From NCBI RefSeq assembly GCF_000165395.2, contig NC_010575.1, forward strand, positions 295,001-359,000: DNA of 64,000 bases, given 5' to 3'. This document shows positions 685 through 16,414 of this stretch, piece by piece. Positions within the stretch are counted from its first letter, which is position 1. Each line of letters begins with the position of its first letter. The notes beneath the pieces were generated by a model that worked only from the letters and a program-made list of their open reading frames with translations, was not told the DNA's origin and did not search any database. The translations under genes were made by a program, and so were the position numbers. The DNA comes from Babesia bovis T2Bo. Taxonomy: Eukaryota > Apicomplexa > Aconoidasida > Piroplasmida > Babesiidae.

Positions 685-3600
685 TATGGTAGTAACAGCG
701 CTGCCAGTACTACCTGCTCTGGTGGCACCGAGGTCATAAGGACACTGATAGACCAGTTGGCACTGGGACTACAGAAGTGGGTTGGGTGGAAGGATAAGGA
801 AGATGAGTGTTGTCTGAAGGGGGATAAAGGAATAGGAAAGAAATGTAAATGTAGTACTGGTGGTGTTAGCGGGTGTTGTAGTACTAGTAGTGGTACTACT
901 TGTCATCAGTGTAGCAAGTGTGGTACCACTGCTAGTGGTCCTGACCAAAAATGCTACCAGTCGGCATATAGCAAGACGGAAGCCCTATGGACTACCATAG
1001 TCAATGGTACCAAAGGTAAGTAGCCATTGGTAGTCATGTGGAGTAATCCTGTAGTAGGTAGTGCCGGAGGAAGTGGATCGGCTGGTAGTGCAGTAGGTGG
1101 TAAAGGTGGTAGTGGTGTAGCTGCTGCCACTGCAGACCCAATTAGAGCCGCCCAGGGTACGTTATTATGGCAATACTACCGACAGTACTACAGAGGTCCA
1201 CCTCCTGGCCCGTATTTTCCTAGGGTCAGTATGTCTCATCTGGAGTGGACTCAGTCAGTTGGGGTTCCTAACTGGAAGTGGGAGTGATCCGAGGTGGTCA
1301 ACAAGTAGTTTGCACAAGATAGATGACGCTGACCAGGCCGGTCTCGGCTCATTCATGGCGGCCATGGGCTATGACCTGGATAGGTTGAATCAGGGGAGTG
1401 GTACAGGTAAGTACTGCCTAGGGTAGTCATGTGGACTTATGGTGTAGTAGGTCAGAAAGGAGAGTTTGTGCAAAAACTGTTGAATGGAGAGCAACCTGCT
1501 AAGGACGGGATTAAGTGGAACGAATTCAAGAATGGCACTAGCAAGGGTAAGTCCACTTCCTCTATAGTACCAATGTACCCTAGACAGTGTAGCTGAGTAC
1601 TACAGCACTATCTATGGTGCAGCTAGTGCTGGCAAGGACAAGAAAACAGAAGACATTTGTAAGGAGTACCCCCTATTGGTACTCCACATCCTGGCCAGTG
1701 GGTACTTCAGGGCAGGCAGTGCCGGGGCGAAGGGAGTGACTACGCCGGCTTCGCCGGCGCCACCAAAGAAGCCCGATACTGAAACTACCAAGAAAGACGA
1801 TACACCCAGGAAACCACGTACAATCCGTGAGATCCTCTACTGGCTAAGTGCGTTGCCCTATAGTGAGAAGTACAAGGGACTGGTAGGGAGGATGGGAGAT
1901 AAGTATCCAAAGAAAGAGACTAATCCACAGGAAACAGTGGAACAGATAGAACTCTACAATGATAGCAGTACTTCTGTCAGTACCACTCTCCAGCGTAAGG
2001 ACATTACCCACTACCTACTGGCCGCCTGTGGCTACTGCCCACTGGTACTCATCGGTATCCAGGGGACCATAGCTACCAGTGGCAAAGAGAGTGCTACACA
2101 AGGTAAGTACATTATTCTAGTGCTATATATAAGGGCGCCATGGGCGCAACGGTGTCTCTAGGGGTAGTCATGTGGACTTATGGTGTAGTAGGTGCAGGAG
2201 GAGCTGGTGCTGGTGCTGACCAGAAGAAGTGTCCCAATCATAGTAAAGACCGTAATTATAGATGTACCCTTGAAGACGCCAACAAGGCACCGGCCACTCC
2301 CCAGGCACAGTCTTCCACTAGTGAACTCCAGCCCGGTGAGGTCTGCTACGGCGGGTACCACCTGGAAGTCTCCAAGTTTGGTAAGTACCCATGAGTACCA
2401 CTTCCTAACACTCTGTGTAGGCCCCCTCCATGGGATGTACGCCAATGGGCTCTTTGGCTTCCAGATGGAGATTAGTCCCGCCCAGTGCCTGGACCAACTG
2501 AGGATATATGTCTACCACTGCTTCTACCAGCTCTATTTCCTGAGGAAGCAATGCAGTACTGCTGTGGAAGGGGGAGTAGGAGGAGGGAGCTCAGTAGTGC
2601 TGGGCTGGCAGAGTTGTAGGTATGGTAGTGGAGTGAATCCAAATGCTGGAGTGAACATTTCATCGTCTTGGTTATGTGAAACACAAGGTAGGTCTTACTA
2701 CAGACACTATGGGAACGCCATGTGGATAATAGAGAACATTATCAGTGTCTTATATGGCGCGCAACCGTGCCATATGGATTCATGGTGTAGCAGGTGGTAC
2801 GGACTGTCAGTGCAAGAAGAGCGCCAGTCATAAATCACCACTGATGTACTTCTTGTGTGATGCGTTGGGTTCCATGGCATGCAAAAAGACAATAGGCAAG
2901 AGTTCCGATAGTGAGACGAATCCCTATCCGGATATCGAGGATCATATGAACAAATCGGTAGATTCTAATGGAAAAGAACAGGGTCCACACCGAGACTATC
3001 CTCAGTTATGCCCTGTCCCAATGGGTTGGAGTAATGAAAGTACTGGCAGTAGCACTAGCGGTGGCCAAGTCAGAGTGAACCACTTCAAAGGTACGTCCCA
3101 GTACTCTATATGGCACCCCTAAGGCACTGTATATACACTAGGGGCACCCCCTGGGCGCCACAGTAACCAATAGTGACTCATGGTATGCACAGATTTAACC
3201 CAGACGCATAAGACAGGGACACTGACCACTATTCCACCAGGTACGTCCCACCCTAGTATATAAGGGCGCCTTCGTAGTCACATGGACTCATCGTGTAGCA
3301 GGCAAAGAGAAGTACCCTGCCCACTGCACTGGGAATACACTGTCACATCTCCTGGAATACTACTGTGACCCAGGAAAGTGCCAGAGTGGCACCCTAGTGG
3401 TACTACTGAGACTGCTGGCATGTATCACTCCCACGGTGCCACGGACACTGGGTGACCTCTTTGGGTTCTATTACTATATAGTGTACATTGAAGGACAAAG
3501 TGGTGGAGGACAGCAGGGAGTGCATGAGAAGCTAGTAGAGTTCGAGAAGGAATCTAAACTGCACATGCCGTCTATTGGTGGTGGTCCTGATGCAGTGGTC

Positions 3601-4326
3601 GAGGCACTGACAAAGTGGAACGGTAAGTATACATACAGGGAGTAGTACTTGTCTAGTGCTATAGGGGCGCGCCGTATAGAGATAGTACCTGACAGTGTCC
3701 GTTAGGGTGGCGCGCTGTGGTAGTGTATAGGGTAGTGATGTAGTGTAATGGAGTAGTACCACTGACAGTGACTCATGGTGGTGTAGGTAATAGTAGTAGT
3801 GCTGTTGGTGGTGCATGCCAGCACAAAGCCGATGGAGGCTCCCTAAAGACCCTCTATGGATGCAGTAATGGAAAAAACAACTGTTGTCAATACCTCTCTC
3901 CTCTTAGTGGCCAGCAGTATGGGCAGTTGAGTCCAGCGATGGCCGGGACCTACCTGTCATGGTTGGTCTATTTGATAGGGGAGTTCCAGGGAGGGCTGAA
4001 GGGGTTGAAAGGGGAGTTTCAGGGGATTAGTTGCACAGAAGCAGAGTGTAAAAATGGTAAGTTCTAGGGCCTATAGGGCGCGCCTATGGAGAAGGGGCGC
4101 CTTCGGCGCAACCGTGTCATATGGATTAATGGTGTAGTAGGTGCGGCAGGAGCTGTTCCTGGATGTGGTGGTGGACAGTGCCAAGCAGGAACCCATGGTA
4201 AACCCTGCGATGGTGGTGACGGAGTATGTAAATGCACCTCTGTGGTATCATGTACCGGGGTACTGCCGGTGTTGTACAAGTATGGGTTCGGGTATGGTGA
4301 TGTCAGTAAGTTGCACCCTGCTGGAG
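685..4326 (+). pseudogene. ves1-beta-like remnant, 12 exons, both ends missing
   Basis: Part of a variant erythrocyte surface antigen gene, beta-like because of its many introns. Exons by splice sites and frame: 685-1015, 1058-1156, 1194-1406, 1451-1546, 1584-2102, 2192-2380, 2421-2687, 2794-3090, 3193-3240, 3302-3622, 3787-4056, 4141-4326. The joined frame is open throughout. It carries VESA1 hallmarks shared with the alpha gene downstream: IDQLALGLQKWVGW followed by a cysteine-rich block, GSVCLIWSGL, RTIREILYWLSALPYS, YCPLVLIGIQG, FYQLYFLRKQC, RTLGDLFGF, YLSPLSGQQYG and SCTGVLPVLY. There is no start codon in the first exon, whose left edge abuts a ves1 3' flank. The last exon ends at a donor (GTAAGT, 4327) with no membrane exon after it. 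All introns are phase 1. It is probably not expressed as it stands and could serve as a sequence donor for antigenic variation (known for the family; inference here). Confidence 0.85.
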
Positions 4327-4807
4327 GTAAGTTGTAGTATAGTAGTATGGATGGTGTAGTGGTAGTGTAGTACCAGTTTTGGTAAAAGTTTCACAAAAGT
4401 TTAGTACTACTTTTGCTGAAAGTTTAGTATAAAAGCAGTAGCTGTTAGGGGTGGTGTATGAGGTCTATGATTTTTTTGGTCTCTACATAGTGACAACAAA
4501 GTGTTAACTATCTGTTGATATCCGCGATTGATATAGACCGTGCCCTGCTACATCTCTACCAATTACAATACACTCTCACCAACACCATTACCTTTATTCT
4601 ACCCACCACTATATACACTTCCCCCTCACAATGGTCAGTTAAGTGGGGGCACTATATATGTTAGAGTTACCCTGGTGGGGTTTATAGAGTATGGGGGTGA
4701 TAGGGTACTGTAGAGACACTGATATAGAATGCACGTCATATTGAAAGTACCTGACACTGTCCGTTACAGTGGCGCGCCCAGTACTATGTAGACTCACCCC
4801 CGTACAG
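4327..4807. repeat. ves1 3'-flank repeat, then intron-like sequence
   Basis: After the last exon of the ves1 remnant come ACTTTTGCTGAAAG-type repeats (4371-4445), a pyrimidine-rich tract (4545-4635) and the box GAGTTACCCTGGTGGGG near 4664, continuing TTTATAGAGTATGGGG. The same box lies at 8919, downstream of the ves1-alpha gene. From about 4740 the sequence resembles a ves1 intron: TACCTGACACTGTCCGTTA followed by GGCGCGC also occurs near 3685 inside intron 10 of the remnant. No exon with a start codon was found for the gene that follows. Confidence 0.6.
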
Positions 4808-7800
4808 AATGCATATGTGGCCTGGCGGCGGCAGTGACTGACCTACTGCAGTCAGTAGAACTCGAGTACAATGGTAAGTACCTAGTACTAGAGTAGTACT
4901 ATCTAGTACCACTACTGGTATACAGTACCTCATGGTGTCCTATAGGCTATCAAGGCGAAGCCAAGGACAAAGGCGCCTCTCAAGAGGAGGTCACTAATCG
5001 CCTCAATGGACTATTCTCCCTAGTCCAGGGACTAGGTGGTACTGCAGTGGTACGGACCTATATAGACCAGCTGGCACAGGTACTCAGTGCACTCGTTGGG
5101 TGGAGTAGGATAGTGCAGTGTGAGAAGGGCAGTGGCTGCGGTGGCAATCCACATGGCAAAGGGAAGTGCGAGTATCTGAAGGATTTGACGCCTAACGATA
5201 TGTCATGTGGAAAGTGTGGGTGTCTTAAGGTAGGCCCTGACAATCATCACCTGGGCAGGGGGTGTACAAAGTGTGATGGAGACAAGTGTGGCAATACTGG
5301 TAGTGGTGGTGGATGTCAGTGTAAGTGCAAAGATGGTACCTGTACCAGGGCTGGTGATGCTGTAGACAACTGCAAATGTGACCGAAGATGTTGCTGTACC
5401 ATTGATACATATAGATCGGCATACAGAGGAAGATACAGCTCTGAGTCATACGTAGAAGGAACAATCACTGCATACCGAGAATGTATGTGGAATTCATCGA
5501 CAAATACTCCCACTCGTCACCAATGTGCCCGTATCCTACTAGGGTCAGTATGTCTCATTTGGAGTGGACTTACTTATATGTATTGGACTGGTAAGTGGGC
5601 CAAGGGTAGCCCCCGGTGGAACAATCACATCCTGGACGGTAGTGGTCTAGATGATGGCACACTATCCCAATGGCTTCAGGCCCTAGGGTTTCCTAAAGGG
5701 ATGTTGAACAATAGTGGGCCAAAGAATAGACTAGATAAGGTCATATGGGATGGGCTTAGGGATATGCTTTTCTTGGGATTCCTGGAGCCTAGTGGTCTCA
5801 GTGGTGATGATGTCAAGGACGAAAATGGCAATACAGCGAGAAGTCCTTTCGGTATGAATTACGCTGGATTTGTACATACTGCACATAGGGATTCATTCAA
5901 CACTGATCAAGCTACTGTCTTCCCTAATGGTACTAGCTCTAGTACTACTGACACTAACCTCCACAAATGTGGTGCCTTGTACAAGCTCTATATTCTATCA
6001 TGTGCCTATTTTACCGGGTTACAGAACAAGGCTGCGCCGAAGGCGGACAATAGAACCCCTAGGACAATCCGTGAGATCCTCTACTGGCTTAGTGCATTGC
6101 CCTATAGTCAGGCATATCCAAAGATACTGAAGCATGGTAAGGATAGACTCACAGAAGTACTCAAGAAACCCGGAGAAACTGAATCTGGTACTGACAATGA
6201 CCAGAAACAACTCGCCTTTCACCAAACAGGCCGCACAGCACCCATTACCGTTGATGAATTCAACCTGTTTGCTCACTTCCAAGCAGTGACCCAGTACTGC
6301 CCACTGGTCCTCATAGGTATCCATGGTGGACTAGGAAAAGGCACTAACAACACCAAAGAACCTGCCATTCACTCCCTGTATGCCAACTCTCACTTCTCCT
6401 TCACCTACCCAGAAGTTAAGATTCAAGCATACAACCAGGTGGTACACTACATTAGGGCTCTATTCTATCAACTCTATTTCCTTAGGAAGCAATGTGCAGT
6501 TAAAGTGGCTCTAGGAGGGAAGTGGCGTGAATGTAGGTATGGTCATGGAGTGGTGTCCAAGGGGGTAATTAGCTGGATGTGCCTGGGGTGTGACCCCATG
6601 GAACATGATAGGAATTATAGGGTGGAGAATATGAAGAAGGGATTGGATGGGGTAGTAAATAAGCTAAAGGCATTGGAAGGGAAGGATAAGGGGGCTGTAG
6701 ATGGGGTGATGGAGTTGAGAAAGGGACTTGAGGCGGCAAAGTCACTATTGGATGCAATAGGTCAGGTAGTGGTACAATTGGGTAATGCCCAGGAGAGGTT
6801 GGATACGGGAAAGTCAGATCTAGACGGAGTGATGAAGGCACTAAAGAAAGTATTTTCAGAGGTGAATAATGGAAGTGATCTAAAGGATGTACTACAGAAG
6901 GTACTAGGGGAAAAGTTGTGTGAGAAGGTGGGGGCACTAGAGAAGGCGGGTGGACTAAAGGATGCTAAGGCTAAGGCTACAGAGGCACTAAAGGCGGCTA
7001 AGGAGGCAGTAGAAAAGCAGAACGGTACTGATGTTGATCCATGTAAGAACCTAGTGAGTGCTGCTATCCATGGGTTACACAAGGCATTGGTGCTATTGAA
7101 GGAGGGAGTGAAGAAGCAGATAGAGGACAGGACAGATCAACTACTGAAAGCAAAAAAGAATCTATCGCATGTATTTGCAGTAGGTGTATCGGTTGATGAA
7201 GAGTACACCACACTGCTCAATGCCATTAACCAGCTTATCTCCCTATGCACCTCTCCCAAGTGCCCAGGATGTAAAGACCACGCCAAGAAGTGTGGTCAAC
7301 CATCAAATCCCACTGTCTGTCAGACCTGCCTCCAACCCACTACCACTGGTGTCCCCTCCCCCCTCCAGGCATTCCTGGAAGACAGGTTGCCAGGGTTTAG
7401 TTGTGATGTAGTACGAGACATAGAGGACCCGGACAAGTACCCACCTGCTGCATCCCACTTAGGACACTGTAATGGCTCAGGTCAGTGCTGTCCACTGCCA
7501 ATGGGATTTAGAAATCAATTCTATAGTGGCAGCATCGGTGATATGACTGGCTCAAGACTCTATGGCATCCTATACTTCTTCAGTAACGAGAACATGATGC
7601 AATCATGTGTCTATAGGCTAGTCAGGGTAACTTCCGCACTCAGTGCCACTACACCACAGGTATTGGGTGATGTATTCGGGTTCTTTAGGGGAGGTGTAGG
7701 AAATAAAGAGGAGGGAAAGAACCAGAGTGGACAGCAGAAGAACTGTGATCACACAGGGGATCCAAGTGGATCTTATGATGAGAACAAGGACAAATACTTT

Positions 7801-8757
7801 TGCGGTTGGTGTGCCTCTGGGTTACGGGAAGAGGTAAAGAAGATAGAGTGGATACCCAATGGGAACAGTACTCCAGGAGGGCACTACATGGACAAAGTCG
7901 GTAAAGCGCTAATAGGTATTAAGGGAGAGAAAAACGATGGTAGTGGTGCTCTAAAGTCCAGTGCTGCTACTGCCAATACCTCCCTCTCAAGACTCACTGA
8001 GAACTGCCAGTACCTCTCCCCCCTAACAGGTGAACTCTATACCGCAGTGAGTGCCACTTTCGGTGGAACATACCTCTCATGGGTACTGTACCTATCAGAT
8101 GCACTTCATTCAGGACTAGAGTCACTTGCTAGTGAGTTCAAGCAAATTGAATGCCGTGGCTGTAAGGGACAGTGTGACCCCAATAAGTGCAAGAAGGGAA
8201 GTCATGGTACCAATGGTGGTGGACAGTGTGGATGCCAATCAATCGTATCATGTACTGGGGTGCTACCAGTACTGTATAGACATGGATTCAGCTATGGTAA
8301 TCCATTCAATCTGGAGGGGTACCACCAGAGGGATGGAAAGACGGATGGACAGTATGACATTGAAGATAAGAAGAAAGAGCGTACTAAGCAGTGCCATCAA
8401 TTCTTGGACAGTCTCAGTGCAGTGATTGACAAGAACAAGCAGGACACATCTAAGGTCGCCTCTCAGAATCATCCCCTGACAGAGCTACTAAAGCAGGTCG
8501 GCAAGCTCCAACACGACATACGGCTCCCCTGGATCTTTGTACTGACCATAGCCTGGCTAGTAGCGGTACTCTACCTAGCATTTGGTGCCATATGGCCACT
8601 GGACTGGACACATATGAGGTCACATTGGTTACGGGGTGGAGCACACCAGTGGCAGTCTATGTGGTATAAGGTGATGACGGGACGGAAGGGAAGAGTAGTG
8701 CTGGAGGGGGTGGAAAATTTTGGTCAATGTTTAGTAGTGCTTTTAGTAATGTTTTAG
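4808..8757 (+). CDS. ves1: variant erythrocyte surface antigen-1, alpha-type (5' end not found)
   Basis: VESA1 subunits are exported by Babesia to the surface of the infected red cell and mediate cytoadhesion and antigenic variation. A short exon, 4808-4873 (22 codons after a CCCCGTACAG acceptor), joins through a 72-bp phase-1 intron (4874-4945) to one long exon, 4946-8757. The long exon encodes, in order: IDQLAQVLSALVGW; a Cys/Lys-rich block (about 5110-5400); GSVCLIWSGLTYMYWTGK; RTIREILYWLSALPYS; YCPLVLIGIHGG; FYQLYFLRKQC; a Lys/Glu/Ala-rich coiled coil (about 6610-7020); a CxxC cluster (7255-7330); QVLGDVFGF; YLSPLTGELY; SCTGVLPVLY; one membrane segment (about 8525-8600); and a short basic tail. 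The stop lies inside the TTTTAGTAATG-type 3' repeat, so the last residues are repeat-encoded. No ATG exon is evident upstream, so the gene may be 5'-truncated or may have a distant first exon. Confidence 0.85.
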
Positions 8758-9486: not shown

Positions 9487-9915
9487 TTACCAAAGGAGAC
9501 CAGAATAATGTGCACGTCTCAAACTCTGACTTTTCTCACTCAATGAAATAAACTTCCTAATACGTTTTTCTACCACGGGCAATATTGCTTTGCTAGAGTT
9601 ATTTGGCACATTCATGGCCAAAGGCCATGGCAACCTGTCCAGAAGATGTTTTCTATTTTCCGGCTTTGGTAACAGATACCATTCAACAGAGTACTTGGGT
9701 GGCTCTGCTGCCTCAGTGTTTTCTTGTGCCTTGGTAATCTCTTATTGCAGTACTTCCACAGGTTCAGTGCCATGTTCCTCTTTCTTATTGAAAAATCTGC
9801 TTAAGAAAGACTCCTTCTTGGATTGTTCCTGGGCTACATCAGTAGAAGTGGCCGTAACACAGAACCCGTATGCCGATACTAGACAGATCTTCCATAACAT
9901 GTTGAAGGCTATCAT
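9487..9915 (-). pseudogene. SmORF-type secreted protein, broken by one in-frame stop
   Basis: A degraded copy of the SmORF family, small signal-peptide proteins found beside ves1 genes in B. bovis. It starts at ATG 9915 with a hydrophobic leader, then ATSTDVAQEQSKKESFLSRF, almost identical to the intact copy at 18458. A TAA at 9744-9742 interrupts the frame. The same frame then continues without another stop for 84 codons and encodes EWYLLPKPENRK, matching the intact copy residue for residue, up to TAA 9489-9487. The last 25 or so codons no longer resemble the intact copy. The family function is unknown. Alternative: the 57-codon leader product is still made; the sequence cannot decide this. 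Confidence 0.85.
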
Positions 9916-10600
9916 TTTGTTACAGTCACTGGAGACTGGGATTCTTAATGGAGCATCTACAGTTGTTATCACGCCCCATCCATAGTACAGTTGCCCCAAA
10001 GTTAGGGGTTGCTCTTCAGTGCAGTTCTCTACAATGGTTGTATTATGTAATTGCTGTTACATGAAGTGATGAATTCAACGGACGTCACATGTCGATACTA
10101 CAACAGACCTTATGGCAATATACCCGAGACATTACAGTAACATTACAATAAACTTCCCATATAGTGATATATTACAATACTATTGTATGCTTCCAATGAT
10201 TATATTGTTCATTTGTTATTCATTGCAAATAGGGGATTATCCTATTTGCATGCTGCCAGCCAGTTATATACACATGTGCTATATGACGTATGTATATAAG
10301 TGGGTTACCCTAGAGCGCTCTGTAATTCCAATAGACTCCAGGAATGTAGGCCCATTAAGAAGGCTTACTGGTACCTACCCATTAGACACTAATGAATTCC
10401 TATCTATTGATGAATCACTAGTTCCCATGTTAACTACACTACCCATGTAGACTGCAGTTACATAGTCATTGTATCCCGTGTTCATCCTTAGATTCATCTA
10501 TTGTTTACCGAATAACGTACAACAATGTTAGTTCTTCATGTTTATAATATCATTTCTCCTTGATAGTCACAGAAACACTACATGTAAATGTGGAATATCA
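9916..10600. other. intergenic stretch, no supported gene
   Basis: This stretch lies between the SmORF pseudogene and the small mtm-like gene. A 112-codon ATG frame (10112-10450, plus) is present, but it has no signal, repeat or family motif and its composition resembles the surrounding non-coding DNA. I do not call it. Confidence 0.4.
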
Positions 10601-11128: not shown

Positions 11129-12265
11129 CTATGATTCCTTTGCGATATCAGTGTCTGCTGCAGTGTTTTCAGCAGTGTCTGTACCATTCAAATTCTTCTT
11201 CTTGGGGAAACACCATGTAAGTAGACCACATCGGTATGCATACCACAATGTCGGTACCATCAGTACCATTGAGTAGCCCAGGAGGGTGTATGACATATCA
11301 CCTAGTCTGTTTCGATGATCCTCCGTACTTGCCATTGCCATTGCTACCAGTGCTATCAGTATTACAACTGCTGCTAATATCCCGAAGCACATGCAATCCT
11401 TGGGCCAGTAGAATACCCTTTTATACTCCAGGCAGTACAAGGTAATGCCTAGGGCCAATAGATGAACCGATAGGAGGGGACACCCTGTAGTAATGAGTAA
11501 TACTGAGCCGCCGCCTTCATCTTCATCCTCACTAGCACTCTTGGGAACTGCCACAGCCAATATAGAGGCCACTGCAAGTGTTGATGCTATTAATGCCACT
11601 ACTTCCAATACAGTATACGGTAGCTTTAGTATAGTGTTCCATATCAATGCCATGGCATAACACTGAGTACAGGGTACTGCCATGTTACCAAGGTAGCTTA
11701 TAGTATGCATTACGGTACCTGCTTTATTGTCGTCAATGCGTCGACTATAGTCGTAACCGTCTTCCTCAACAAACCGTATCAGTGATACCGTTACTGCCAG
11801 AACTACTAGTACGACTAGCACTAAAACTATTGCACTACCATAGCAAATGTACTGGCTTTTGCAACATGGTCTACAGAATAGGTTACACTTCCATCCACAG
11901 TATAGGGTACCACCTAGTATACCCAGCAGTACTACTGCAACAGCGTAAATGGGATGTGTCGATTTGATGAATAAAGAATTCCAAAGACCCCAACCCTGTC
12001 GCTCCAATACCACTGCCATTACCTGTAGTACTACTAGTAGTGCCAGTAGCATCCAGTGGTACCAGGTCATTGGTTGTACTAGATACCCAGCATTTTTGCA
12101 TTGCCACAAACAGACACCTAGCAACACAATAGAGAGTGTAGTGGTAGTGGGTATTGCTGTAGCGTTGCCTGCGTCTATCAGGGACACCAAGAAACCCAGT
12201 GCCTGGCAGCACAAGTAGAGCCATAGAAGGACCAGTACTATAGTAGTACAGTTAGTTATATCCAT
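11129..12265 (-). CDS. multi-transmembrane (mtm-type) protein
   Basis: ATG 12265 opens a single-exon gene of 378 codons. Nine or ten hydrophobic segments run through the protein, beginning at residue 9 (VLVLLWLYLCCQALGFLVSL). The last loop carries KRVFYWPKDCMCFG and the C-terminus has a WCFPKKKN basic tail. The same layout recurs in the genes at 16415 and 20990: a YWP(K/R)D loop before the last two segments in the first, and a Y(R/K)CG(L/N)-type turn near the end in both. This defines a paralogous family scattered among the ves1 genes, as described for multi-transmembrane genes of B. bovis. Substrate and location are unknown. A multi-pass transporter-like or export role is possible but not shown by any motif. 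Confidence 0.75.
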   Translation of the reverse strand: MDITNCTTIVLVLLWLYLCCQALGFLVSLIDAGNATAIPTTTTLSIVLLGVCLWQCKNAGYLVQPMTWYHWMLLALLVVLQVMAVVLERQGWGLWNSLFIKSTHPIYAVAVVLLGILGGTLYCGWKCNLFCRPCCKSQYICYGSAIVLVLVVLVVLAVTVSLIRFVEEDGYDYSRRIDDNKAGTVMHTISYLGNMAVPCTQCYAMALIWNTILKLPYTVLEVVALIASTLAVASILAVAVPKSASEDEDEGGGSVLLITTGCPLLSVHLLALGITLYCLEYKRVFYWPKDCMCFGILAAVVILIALVAMAMASTEDHRNRLGDMSYTLLGYSMVLMVPTLWYAYRCGLLTWCFPKKKNLNGTDTAENTAADTDIAKES

Positions 12266-12661
12266 GATATCCTAGGAATCTACTATGTAGTACTTATAAG
12301 TAGTGATTTACTCACGATATCCTGGGATTCCATGGTAGCACTAGGGTGGTACTCAACGGAACCCAGTAGTGGTGAGGTTGTTACAGAGGCATGGGTATGT
12401 CCAAGTGAAGTGTGTTATAGAAGCTTCTATGAAGGCTCATTATAAGCAGATAATAACTACGGGGTGTGGGGGATTGAATGGTTTCATCGGTAGAGTCATA
12501 ATATTTCTCAGCAGTACTAGTTGGTACCGAAGTAGTGCTGTCGTACCGTTCCATGATATTCAGCAATATCACATGATCATCGTCAGAAAGATTACTATAT
12601 AGAGCTCCAGAAACACATTGTTTTTCATCTTGTCCACCTGACTACCCTAGGCTGTACTCAC
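12266..12661. other. intergenic; intron end of the broken ves1 copy and a short direct repeat
   Basis: Bases 12625-12661 are the start of a ves1-beta intron on the minus strand (GTGAGTACAGCCTAGGGTAGT), after which homology stops abruptly. Near 12264 and 12314 the block ATGATATCCTAGGAATC recurs as CACGATATCCTGGGATTC, a short direct repeat just upstream of the mtm gene. No coding region is supported. Confidence 0.5.
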
Positions 12662-15575
12662 CTGCTCCCTGATTCAACCTCTCCAGGTCATAGCCCATGG
12701 CAGCCATGAATGAACCGAGACCCTTATTGGCATCAATCTCTATCTCGTGCAGCTTACTATCCTTCCACCTCTTATTGTTGCCACCACCCGTTAGGAACCC
12801 CAACTGACTGAGTCCACTCCAGATGAGGCATACTGACCCTAGGAAAATACGGGCCAGGAGGTGGACATCTGTAGTACTGTTGGTAGTACTGCTACAATAA
12901 CGTACCCTGGGCGGCCTTCACTAGGTCGGCACTACCGGCACTACCTACTCAGGATTACTCCATATGGCTACCAATGGGTGCTTACCTGGTGTACCATTGA
13001 CTATGTTGGTCCATTGAGCATCCGTCTTGTTGTAGGCCGAGAGGTAGCATTTGTTGTTAGGATCACTAGCACTAGGACCAGTACCACACGACTTGCATTC
13101 ATGACAAGTAGTAGCACTACCACCAGTACCACCGGTACAACAAGTGGCACCACCACCAGTACTACTACATGTACACGCCTTCCCTATCCCCGTACTTTGT
13201 TTAGTACTACCATCTCCCTTAAGACAACAGATATCCTGATCCCCTTCCTCCCACCCAACCCACTTCTGTAGTCCCAGTGCCAAGTGGTCCATCAGTGTCT
13301 TTATAATCTTTTTACCACTACTTATAGTACTAGTGTAATACTAACCATATGTCACCACTACTGCAATGCCACCCGCACCTTATGGATTAACGTGCTGACT
13401 GTGTTCTTACCAGGATCTACTTGTAGAGATCCACTGGACACTTCTATGAAGTCCTTCAGTGACTTTTCTTTTTCACCTAGCTGCCGACCCTAGTTTCGTC
13501 TCCACATCCTTTAGCTTTCCATTACTACCACCATTATTCCCTGTCAGATTATCTAGTGCCGTCTTAGCTTCCTTTAGTTTCCCATTCAGCCCATTCTTAG
13601 CCCCCTCCAGTGCCATCTTAGCCTCCCCTAGTTTCTTTATAACCCCCTTCATCGCATCCTTATCCTTCCCTTCCAATGCCTGCTGGGCATTACCCAATTG
13701 TACCACTACTTCACCAATCTTCTCCAGTACATCCTTTAGCTTGCCTGCATCACTGCCATTCGATCCTAATGGCAGTTTGTTGAGTTTGTTCCCCATCTCC
13801 TTTACCCTACATTTCCTATCATGTTCCATGGGGTTACACCCCAGGCACATCCAGCTGATTACCCCCTTGGACACCAGATCCTTGCCATACCTACACTCGC
13901 GCCATTTACCTCCCATAGCAACTTTTACTTCACATTGCTTCCTTAGGAAATAGAGTTGATAGAACAGAGCCCTAATGTAGTGTACCACCTGGTTGTATGC
14001 TTGGATTGACACAGTGGGATATGTGAAGGAGCACTGAGAGTTGGCATAGAGGGAGTGAATGGCAGGAGAATCAGTGCCTTTAGTGTTACCAGTGCTTTTG
14101 CCTAGGCCACCCTGGATACCTATGAGGACCAGTGGGCAGTACTGGGTCACTGCTTGGAAGTGGGCGTAGAGGTCAACCTGTTGTACTGTGAAGGGCCGTG
14201 CATCTGGCTTAAAGGTGAAGGAGAGCTTTTGCTGGCTACTATCCTTGAATATATCATCTAGCTTCTCCTTACAGTGATCCATTATCTTTGTATACGCCTG
14301 ACTATAGGGCAATGCACTTAGCCAGTATAGGATCTCTCGGATGGTCTTAGGAGTCCGATTCTCCGCCTTCGGCGGAGTCTTTTTCTGCAATCCAGTAAAA
14401 TAGGAACATGATACAATATGGAGCTTGTACAAGGCACCTCGTTTGTCCTGATTAGTGTCGGTCCCATTGTCAGTGCCATCCTTGAAGGGTCCCTCCTTAT
14501 CAAATGCACCCTTATCTAAGGTATGTATGTATCCTGCATAGTTCATACCAGCTGGTTGTCTGAATGTATTAGCATTATCGTCAATGCCATGGACATTAGC
14601 ACCATTACCAGTATCCGGGAATCCCAAATATAACTTATCCCTTAACCCATCCCATATAATAGCATCCCATCTATTTCCAGGACCATGGTTATTCAACATA
14701 TCCTTAGGAAACCCTAGGGCCTGTAACCATTGGGACAGGGTACCGTCATCTAGGCCACTGCCGTCCAGGATATGGTTGTTCCACCGGGGGCTACTTTTAT
14801 GGTACTTTCCAGTCCAATACATATAAGTAATGCTACTCCAGATGAGACATACTGACCCTAGGAGGATACGGGCACATTGGTGGCGACGTTGGGAGGGCGT
14901 CAACTTGTCACGTAGATCTAGGATGGTGTTGCCACCAAGTAACGTACCATTGAGGTCATTCCATATAGGTTGTCGGTATGCCTGTTTCGTTCCACCTACG
15001 TATGAATCGAAGCTGACTATCCCTCCATATGCCGACTGATAAGTGTCCTTGTATATACGATGGCCACGGTTATTCGTCCCCTGATGGTCCTCCTGTTCGA
15101 TACAGATACACTTAGCCTTTTCTCCAGCACACCCACTACTACACTTATCCTTACAACAACACTTGCAGCATTTGCCTGCTAAAGCGCATTTACACTTCTC
15201 AGCAGTACACTGCGTGCCGCCACCAGTAATACAGCTACAAGTATGCGCATTACCACCACTATCCATACACTTCGTACACCTCCTTCCTAGGTGGTGTCCT
15301 TCATTACTGCTCTGATCGGGATCTTTCCATTTCATACATTCACATTTGTCGCACGGCGTGTTCGCTTTTACTTCGTCTAGATACTTGCAGCCACTATTTA
15401 TGCCATGTTGATTGTTATGGCCACTACCACCACAGCTACTGCCCTTATCACACTTATCTATCTTACTCCACCCAACTAGTGCACTGAGTACCTGTGCCAG
15501 CTGGTCTATGTAGGTCCGGACTACAGGGGGTACCACCACGGCAGTACTAGATGACCACCCTGAACATCTGGCACT
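12662..15575 (-). pseudogene. chimeric ves1 copy: alpha front half running into beta-like front exons
   Basis: On the minus strand, an alpha-type reading frame runs from about 15575 to a TGA at 13475-13473. It contains RTYIDQLAQVLSALVGW, a Cys-rich block, GSVCLIWSSITYMYWTGK, RTIREILYWLSALPYS, YCPLVLIGIQGG and the start of the Lys/Ala-rich coil. It then stops, lacking the rest of the coil, the conserved second half and the membrane segment. A second open stretch in a frame shifted by one base (about 13487-13411) ends at a GTAAGA donor. Beta-like exons follow at about 13340-12986 (LALGLQKWVGW and a Cys-rich block), 12944-12906 and 12868-12662 (ARIFLGSVCLIWSGL), matching exons 1-3 of the remnant at 685. 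Intron 12905-12869 is 37 nt, as in that copy. There is no start codon, no membrane exon and no frame-consistent join across the junction. Confidence 0.8.
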
Positions 15576-16414
15576 ATTATACTAAACTTGTACCAAAAGT
15601 ACCAAGCAACTTTTTATGAATCTCTTACTAAAAGTCTCACTAACTTTGCTATCAAATTTCTATGAATCGTTCATTAAAGTGGCTTATACAGTGTCGTTAT
15701 CTCTGTGTAGTCTAGTGAATGATTTGTGTTCTGTCTAAATACAGTGGAGACCTGTAGCAGGGACACTCTATTTCTATTGGGGATAACAATATATATTTAA
15801 GACATTATCGTAGTGACTAGCATTGTTTTGTTCACTAGGTAGTCACTGTATAGTTACATATTCATTAGCTTCATCGTTATCATATCAGTGATTACTACCT
15901 TGTACTGCTAGGATTCCATATAATAGTGTCTATAGTACTATATAGTATCTATTATCCCTTATAACAACGTCTATAATCCCATATAACGCCTATCAGTCCG
16001 TATAACAACATCTATGATCCTACATGACATCCATAACATTTCATAACAATGTCCATATTGATATATATAATACCTTCTAGTTAATATAACACATATTATC
16101 CCTTATAACAACCTCTACAATCCTAGATAGCATCTATAATTCCCTATAAAACCACCTATTCCCTACTACAACTTCTACCACCCCCTTTATCACCACCCCT
16201 ACCTCCACTCCCTCCATCACCACACCACCTCACCGCCACTGAATACCTACCCTACCCTTTCCCCTTTCCGTGATGCCATCATGGGGCATCACCACTTGAG
16301 CCCCTGTTGTAATACGCCGCCTATTCCACTGGGTACCACCGAATAGTAGTACTCACTAGTACCGGTAGTGGTGCTGCCGTAGCAGTGCACGCCTCCACAT
16401 CGCTACGCTTCACA
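15576..16414. repeat. ves1 flank repeat, degenerate tandem repeat and C-rich tract
   Basis: Bases 15580-15690 carry, on the minus strand, the ACTTTTAGTAA-type repeat found beside the other ves1 copies. Bases 15925-16150 form a degenerate tandem repeat of about 20-22 bp with the core ATCCCTTATAACAAC followed by a variant of GTCTATA. It repeats at least six times with drift. Bases 16150-16270 are C-rich on the plus strand and thus G-rich in the direction of the ves1 copy. The order G-rich tract, spacer, AT repeat, ves1 start mirrors bases 270-690. Confidence 0.65.

What the first reader, a model, noticed from the sequence alone, without database searches (positions are those of the whole stretch)
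685..4326. All introns of the ves1-beta copy are phase 1 and all internal exons are multiples of three
Reading splice sites by eye gives eleven introns. Each splits a codon after its first base, and exons 2-12 measure 99, 213, 96, 519, 189, 267, 297, 48, 321, 270 and 186 nt. The alpha gene's short exon (66 nt) and its intron follow the same rule, as do the 39- and 207-nt exons in the minus copy. Such symmetry means any exon, or run of exons, can be swapped, duplicated or dropped without a frameshift. For a gene family that varies by segmental conversion this could be a designed-in tolerance.
Basis: partly seen in the sequence, partly recalled or inferred. Interest (0 to 1): 0.8.

Follow-up and report, generated by a model that had tools for sequence, protein, structure and literature searches.

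The report
Antigen gene family with phase-1 introns
In a cattle parasite's variable surface-antigen genes nearly every intron cuts the reading frame at the same codon position, and about half of these introns look like old copies of one another sitting at the protein's most variable loops.

Summary
Confirmed: in this truncated ves1-beta copy all eleven introns are phase 1 and exons 2-12 have the stated lengths. It is a family rule: 194 of 200 introns in 22 public Babesia bovis beta models mapped to this genome. A phase-blind gene finder, at the strictest of four settings, gave 170 of 176 in beta genes and 15 of 55 in non-ves DNA. The cause looks different from the one proposed. Introns I1, I3, I5, I7, I9 and I11 (with I10, I12) are sequence relatives; I0, I2, I4 and I6 are not. 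The related introns split glycine codons at variable loops, mostly end in tandem AGs, and none of 113 tails is open in phase 0. So much of the uniformity looks like common descent of introns. Symmetry is not needed for the short homologous conversion already known, but it is not idle: E9 is skipped in half the readable public models, and extra partial exon blocks in five loci start inside intron-12-like sequence. No transcript reads were available; the public models of this locus differ at I1, I5, I7, E9, I11 and alpha intron 2.

The parts
685..1015 (+). E1 of ves1-beta copy, 5'-truncated (no start codon in the open frame); ends in phase 1
   Evidence: N-terminal exon not found in window; cut inside E1 relative to complete genes
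1016..1057 (+). I1, 42 nt, phase 1, class B (shared 3' module)
1058..1156 (+). E2, 99 nt, Gly/Ser-rich optional exon
1157..1193 (+). I2, 37 nt, phase 1, class A
1194..1406 (+). E3, 213 nt
1407..1450 (+). I3, 44 nt, phase 1, class B
1451..1546 (+). E4, 96 nt
1547..1583 (+). I4, 37 nt, phase 1, class A
1584..2102 (+). E5, 519 nt
2103..2191 (+). I5, 89 nt, phase 1, class B with GC block; public model uses an acceptor 30 nt earlier
2192..2380 (+). E6, 189 nt
2381..2420 (+). I6, 40 nt, phase 1, class A
2421..2687 (+). E7, 267 nt, conserved; used to find 36 beta loci
2688..2793 (+). I7, 106 nt, phase 1, class B; public model ends it at 2745
2794..3090 (+). E8, 297 nt
3091..3192 (+). I8, 102 nt, phase 1; body related to I5 and I10, tail not of the B kind
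3193..3240 (+). E9, 48 nt mini-exon, skipped in the public model of this gene
3241..3301 (+). I9, 61 nt, phase 1, class B
3302..3622 (+). E10, 321 nt
3623..3786 (+). I10, 164 nt, phase 1, class B-related; present in only some beta genes
3787..4056 (+). E11, 270 nt
4057..4140 (+). I11, 84 nt, phase 1, class B
4141..4326 (+). E12, 186 nt, followed by a donor
4327..4442 (+). first part of I12; gene is cut inside this intron, terminal exon missing
4874..4945 (+). ves1-alpha intron 2, 72 nt, phase 1, unrelated to the B set; public model P0001 does not use it
12906..12944 (-). E2 (39 nt) of the minus-strand beta fragment
12662..12868 (-). E3 (207 nt) of the minus-strand beta fragment, which is cut just downstream inside I3

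Best explanation
This is a truncated member of the ves1-beta variant-antigen family, and the phase-1 rule belongs to the whole family. Shown: the rule itself, and a split of the introns into two kinds. Class A introns (I0, I2, I4, I6) are short, position-specific and followed by conserved protein. Class B introns (I1, I3, I5, I7, I9, I11, with I10 and I12 and partly I8) share sequence with one another, split glycine codons in variable Gly/Ser-rich loops and mostly end in two AGs three bases apart. Inferred: the B introns descend from one ancestral intron that was copied to several glycine codons before the family expanded, so their common phase is common ancestry; duplication and conversion then passed the same structure to every copy. 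Inferred: phase 1 is kept because in phase 0 a slip to the first TAG acceptor, or inclusion of the intron tail, would put a stop in frame, whereas in phase 1 it adds one codon or about ten. The symmetry makes exon skipping, acceptor shifts and the joining of exon blocks inside B introns frame-neutral; it is more likely a by-product of this history than a device for segmental conversion.
For: Phase: 194 of 200 introns in 22 mapped public models; 254 of 271 in a phase-blind prediction trained on public beta introns over 25 positions, two of which overlap neighbours, and none of the 17 exceptions lies between E1 and E12; every class between labelled exons phase 1 only; alpha 7 of 7 resolved in four genes. 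Generic phase-blind model: beta 170 of 176, non-ves 15 of 55. Intron relatedness, splice consensus trimmed, up to 40 pairs per class pair: median z 3.9-10.8 for all 15 pairs among I1, I3, I5, I7, I9, I11; 14.6 for I5-I12, 8.0 for I10-I11, 9.3 for I10-alpha I1; I0, I2, I4, I6 and alpha I2 between -1.0 and 2.6 with every other class. Tail identity between positions 0.67-0.88 against 0.31 for B versus A; I3 and I5 consensus tails identical over 27 nt. Tail motif: 99 of the 100 genome hits were checked; 93 lie within 2.6 kb of a beta E7 on its strand, 4 more at 2.8-3.1 kb, 2 elsewhere, at 0.7 and 3.0 kb from alpha hits; 0 in 49.5 kb of control DNA. Tandem acceptor B 97 of 123, A 0 of 62; junction Gly B 114 of 123, A 30 of 62; mean identity of the 12 residues downstream 0.26 (B) and 0.85 (A), upstream 0.38 and 0.53. 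30-nt tails open if phase 0/1/2: I1, I3, I5, I7, I9, I11 0/102/59 of 113; I0, I4, I6 27/11/31 of 58.
Against: Class A introns and alpha intron 2 are also phase 1 and unrelated to the B set, so common descent does not explain them. Splice sites rest on sequence and public models, not on reads; 10 of 34 beta models read through an intron tail as protein and P0001 has a phase-2 intron in the alpha gene of this locus. The gene finder's beta share was lower at looser settings (291 of 545, 212 of 319, 192 of 218), and at the strictest it matched 101 of 187 public introns. Tails at different positions in one gene are no more alike than in different genes, so no copying between positions is visible in them today; yet I12/I5 hybrids exist, which speaks for selection-relevant joining at B introns. 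Weak pairs: I7-I10 2.1, I9-I10 1.5, I12 with I1, I3, I7, I10 0.6-1.0; I10 has the tandem acceptor in 0 of 6. I2 had one distinct sequence, and 4 of its 5 rows used an alternative acceptor, so its values there are unreliable. The open B tail may be inherited from one ancestor rather than kept by selection.
Confidence: 0.55

Rival explanations
1. Selected exon-shuffling tolerance: symmetric phase-1 exons are kept because exons or runs of exons are swapped, duplicated or dropped during antigenic variation.
For: E2 is an optional exon (5 of 25 positions); E9 skipped in 14 of 29 readable models; extra exon blocks in L011, L016, L018, L025, L026 starting inside I12-like sequence, two with I12/I5 hybrid introns; tract ends enriched in introns, 18 of 58 versus 16.9% by length, p 0.006; mobile domains in animals prefer phase-1 introns (PMC3488318, passages).
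Against: Best exon hits were in order in 22 of 25 slices and the other three are slices holding a second partial copy, so no reordered gene was seen; the extra blocks follow a complete gene and may be silent; most tract ends lie in exons; published conversion is short and homologous; the highest tract-end density was in a class A intron, I6, 9 ends in 1075 nt.
Confidence: 0.25
2. Codon composition alone: introns settle at G^GT sites and this protein is rich in glycine codons, so phase 1 is favoured without any further cause.
For: Phase-1 share of G^GT is 0.56 and of G^G 0.48 in the window's beta exons; B junctions are Gly in 114 of 123.
Against: Even then 11 of 11 has p about 1.8e-3; class A introns I0 and I4 rarely split Gly codons (0 of 12 and 3 of 22).
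Confidence: 0.12
3. Partly an artefact of gene models: some B introns or their tails are really coding and the true structure has fewer introns.
For: Public models retain tails (10 of 34); tails are open in the exon frame; P0090 differs at five places.
Against: Donors are strong, and in 9 of 11 exons the other frames are closed; other public models splice the same sites; the shortened introns of P0090 are still phase 1.
Confidence: 0.08

Closest known systems
Babesia bovis ves1-beta genes (VESA1b subunit), with up to 11 introns
   Same: The window gene is one of them; multi-intron structure is published (PMC4066756, passages; PMC12064010, passage).
   Different: Phase uniformity, the two intron classes and the shared intron tails are not mentioned in the passages I saw; the listings of searches showed no title that I recognised as reporting them.
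Symmetric phase-1 exons of mobile domains (animal exon shuffling)
   Same: Phase 1 on both sides of every internal exon (PMC3488318, passage).
   Different: Here exon order appears fixed and the variation known from print is homologous conversion.
Introner elements (Micromonas, Amoebophrya)
   Same: Families of sequence-related introns at different sites (PMC3488318, PMC7789003, passages).
   Different: Found only near ves genes, about 8 positions, one phase, no sign of current mobility; terminal inverted repeats and target duplications were not shown here.
NAGNAG tandem acceptors
   Same: Two AGs three bases apart.
   Different: Concentrated in one class of introns of one antigen family; alternative use not shown. 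Literature seen as a listing with starts of abstracts only.
SICAvar genes of Plasmodium knowlesi
   Same: Multi-exon variant antigens for which exon shuffling has been suggested, with gene fragments of first or last exons (PMC5798397, passages).
   Different: Phase is not mentioned in that paper (0 occurrences); introns long there, short here.

Membership tests
ves1-beta | Sequence match to annotated beta subunits | tested here: met
   P0090, named beta subunit of B. bovis T2Bo, maps to the window over 793 of 793 residues
ves1-beta | Complete gene with start exon and C-terminal membrane exon | tested here: not met
   N-terminal exon not found in window; no terminal exon in the slice; cut inside I12. 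It is a truncated copy
ves1-beta | Transcribed and spliced as drawn | not testable with these tools
   no reads available
Symmetric exon-shuffling modules | Same phase at both ends of internal exons | tested here: met
Symmetric exon-shuffling modules | Exons found in different order or copy number | tested here: inconclusive
   order unchanged in the main genes; extra partial blocks in five loci, E2 and E9 variable, but their use in messages is unknown
Introner elements | Introns at different sites share sequence beyond splice signals | tested here: met
   class A introns as internal control
Introner elements | Spread over many unrelated genes | tested here: not met
   97 of 99 tail-motif hits lie within 3.1 kb of a beta E7, the other two near alpha hits; 0 in 49.5 kb of control
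Introner elements | Target-site duplication or terminal inverted repeats | tested here: inconclusive
   filled and empty I10 sites compared only by eye; no systematic test
NAGNAG alternative splicing | Both acceptors used in transcripts | not testable with these tools
   tandem sites present in 97 of 123 B introns

The most novel reading that the evidence does not exclude
The B introns are an introner-like family confined to one antigen family and placed at its hypervariable loops. Their shared bodies are joints at which exon blocks from different positions can be spliced together in the DNA, and their in-frame tandem acceptors and frame-open tails would let RNA splicing itself add or drop loop residues (one codon, about ten codons, or the E9 mini-exon), giving antigen variety on top of segmental conversion. 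Phase 1 would be kept because it lets tandem TAG acceptors, tails and hybrid introns be read without a stop or a frame change, as phase 0 does not.
Probability: 0.2. Interest if true: 0.8.

Novelty: new variant of a known kind. Interest (0 to 1): 0.55.

Why it matters
It gives a simple, checkable account of why one antigen family has a single intron phase, and suggests that intron copying, rarely reported in apicomplexans as far as I recall, may have shaped it. It also shows that public models of these genes disagree in predictable, in-frame ways (E9, intron tails), so existing RNA reads could settle both splicing and possible RNA-level variation. A general caution follows: uniform phase in a gene family need not mean selection for exon shuffling.

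Tried and rejected
A first gene-finder setting gave hundreds of false introns and was discarded; stricter penalties were then compared against public beta introns. Phase-1 shares by setting: control 129/431 at -6, 59/230 at -8, 40/145 at -10, 27/88 at -11, 15/55 at -12, 5/33 at -13, 4/22 at -14; beta 291/545, 212/319, 192/218 and 170/176 at -6, -8, -10 and -12 (beta was not run at the others). RNA folding of three whole window introns and the first 140 nt of I10 was unremarkable (z -1.41 to 0.15), so a structural role of the GC block was dropped. That B introns are present-day anchors of exchange between positions was first dropped (no within-gene concerted evolution; conversion-tract ends denser in A introns I4 and I6 than in B introns) and then partly taken back: extra exon blocks start inside I12-like sequence, and of 10 fragment ends compared five lie in exons E1, E3 or E11 and five in B introns (I3, I12, I12/I5), B introns being 13% of gene length; the L024 3' end is less certain. 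The idea that E2's Gly-rich segment moves as an exon was dropped: a similar segment lies in the middle of E12 in P0077, not at an exon edge (by eye). Rows dropped: of 34 beta proteins 25 had a candidate locus and 3 of these failed 95% coverage; P0093 and P0096 are two models of one gene, and one counted intron is only 20 nt. Of 36 beta E7 hits 25 were catalogued; two overlap neighbours and were left out. In one search, 21 of 25 positions gave an I10 reading (6 filled, 15 empty, two of the empty ones being the overlapping positions) and 24 gave an E9 row. In one search the E9 alignment threshold was too strict; one search replaced it.
Full report
What it is. The window lies in an 8.23 Mb, 8-contig genome whose encoded proteins match Babesia bovis T2Bo entries. 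The gene at 685-4326 is a ves1-beta copy: the public beta-subunit entry P0090 maps onto it over all 793 residues. It is truncated at both ends: the N-terminal exon of full-length relatives was not found in the window, the 5' end lies inside E1 of complete genes, and downstream of E12 only the start of intron 12 is present.

The observation. Each of the 11 introns is phase 1 and each exon is open in that frame. The two minus-strand exons are as stated.

Family test. Of 34 beta-type proteins, 25 had a candidate locus among the DNA fetched and 22 mapped with at least 95% coverage. They hold 200 introns: 194 phase 1, 4 phase 2, 1 phase 0, 1 unresolved; four of the five exceptions have poor donors, one (P0096 intron 6) has a good one. 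A phase-blind gene finder trained on public beta introns gave 254 phase 1, 12 phase 2 and 5 phase 0 over 25 positions, none of the exceptions between E1 and E12; 152 introns agreed exactly with public ones. A generic phase-blind model gave, at the strictest of four settings, 170 of 176 in beta and 15 of 55 in 91.5 kb of non-ves DNA; there it recovered 101 of 187 public introns, and looser settings gave lower beta shares because of false introns. The control introns are predictions, not read-supported. Alpha introns that could be resolved were 7 of 7 phase 1 in four genes. A review states that nearly all analysed genomes have an excess of phase 0 (PMC3488318, passage).

Two kinds of introns. 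With splice consensus trimmed, introns I1, I3, I5, I7, I9 and I11 are alike across positions (median z 3.9-10.8 in all 15 pairs), I10 and I12 are tied to them through their bodies, I8 in part, and alpha intron 1 resembles I10 and I11; I0, I2, I4, I6 and alpha intron 2 resemble nothing (-1.0 to 2.6). The shared 27-nt tails are 67-88% identical between positions and 31% to class A tails. The tail motif stays near ves genes: of 99 hits checked (of 100), 93 lie within 2.6 kb of a beta E7 on the same strand, 4 within 3.1 kb, 2 near alpha hits; none in 49.5 kb of control. B introns have tandem acceptors in 97 of 123, A introns in 0 of 62; B introns split glycine codons in 114 of 123; the protein just downstream is variable (mean identity 0.26 against 0.85 for A) while upstream the contrast is smaller (0.38 and 0.53). 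The 30-nt tails of I1, I3, I5, I7, I9 and I11 are open in the phase-1 frame in 102 of 113 and in the phase-0 frame in none. The B tails are related, so these counts are not independent.

Presence and absence. I10 is present in 6 and absent in 15 of 21 readings, two of the absent ones being overlapping positions. E2 stands as a separate exon at 5 of 25 positions, E3 and E4 are predicted fused in L021, L022 and L028, and I0 is missing in several genes. The mini-exon E9 was found in 20 of 24 rows, 39-51 nt, each time a multiple of three and without stops, though public models include it in 15 and skip it in 14 of 29.

Extra exon blocks. Exon by exon, best hits were in order in 22 of 25 slices; the three others hold a second partial copy. 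L011 has a second block from E6 to the terminal exon, L025 one with E6-E8, L016 two extra terminal exons, L018 and L026 one each. The extra terminal exons carry intron-12 sequence from about 43-50 nt after its donor; the two E6 blocks are preceded by I12-like sequence running into I5-like sequence, that is, hybrid introns at the segment the two share. Of 10 ends of fragments compared, five lie in exons and five in B introns, which make up 13% of gene length there. These blocks follow a complete gene, and whether they are spliced into messages is unknown.

Does symmetry serve conversion? Published tracts average 109 nt in wild type and use flanking homology (PMC7485966, passages). Among 23 genes here, 32 near-identical tracts of at least 150 nt gave 58 ends, 18 in introns against 16.9% expected by length (p 0.006) and 12.7% by difference density (p 0.0002). 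Tract ends are alignment ends, not observed events, so this is suggestive only. Symmetry is not needed for homologous conversion; it could matter for E2, E9 and the extra blocks.

Interpretation. The simplest account is that part of the introns are old copies of one intron at glycine codons of variable loops, that their phase is common ancestry, and that duplication spread the structure. The phase of the class A introns is left unexplained. If B introns count as one event, the leftover coincidence is about 0.003 (my arithmetic from 0.56 and 15/55 to the fourth).

Literature. Passages were seen in PMC4066756, PMC12064010, PMC3459096, PMC6630957, PMC7485966, PMC1431722, PMC5798397, PMC7789003 and PMC3488318; none of the passages shown mentions a ves1 phase rule or shared ves1 intron tails. 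Searches were seen as listings. The B. bovis genome paper asked for by DOI was not held, and Al-Khedery and Allred 2006 was not read.

Noticed in passing
4086-8754 (+): The public alpha model P0001 begins inside beta intron 11, includes beta E12 and splices it in frame to alpha exon 2, so it is a beta-alpha chimera; an alpha N-terminal exon was not found in the window.
   Followed up: partly
12400-15600 (-): A minus-strand alpha reading frame (VESA1_N) is followed by a beta fragment with E1, E2 and E3 that is cut inside I3, within the shared tail.
   Followed up: partly
L011, L025, L016, L018, L026: Extra partial exon blocks downstream of complete beta genes, starting inside I12-like sequence.
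   Followed up: partly
about 9600-9990 (-): Sequence encoding VEWYLLPKPENR, a motif quoted for SMORF proteins in PMC3459096, seen by eye.
   Followed up: no
11129-12268 (-): 379-codon frame that looks rich in membrane segments by eye; no Pfam match.
   Followed up: no
ves loci L009-L030: A GC block (regular expression HP) occurs 78 times in the loci examined, 48 in predicted beta introns on the same strand and 30 elsewhere, none in five control loci.
   Followed up: no
23 beta genes: Introns take about 17% of length but 12.7% of differences between paralogs (60 of 253 pairs), so they vary less than the exons.
   Followed up: no
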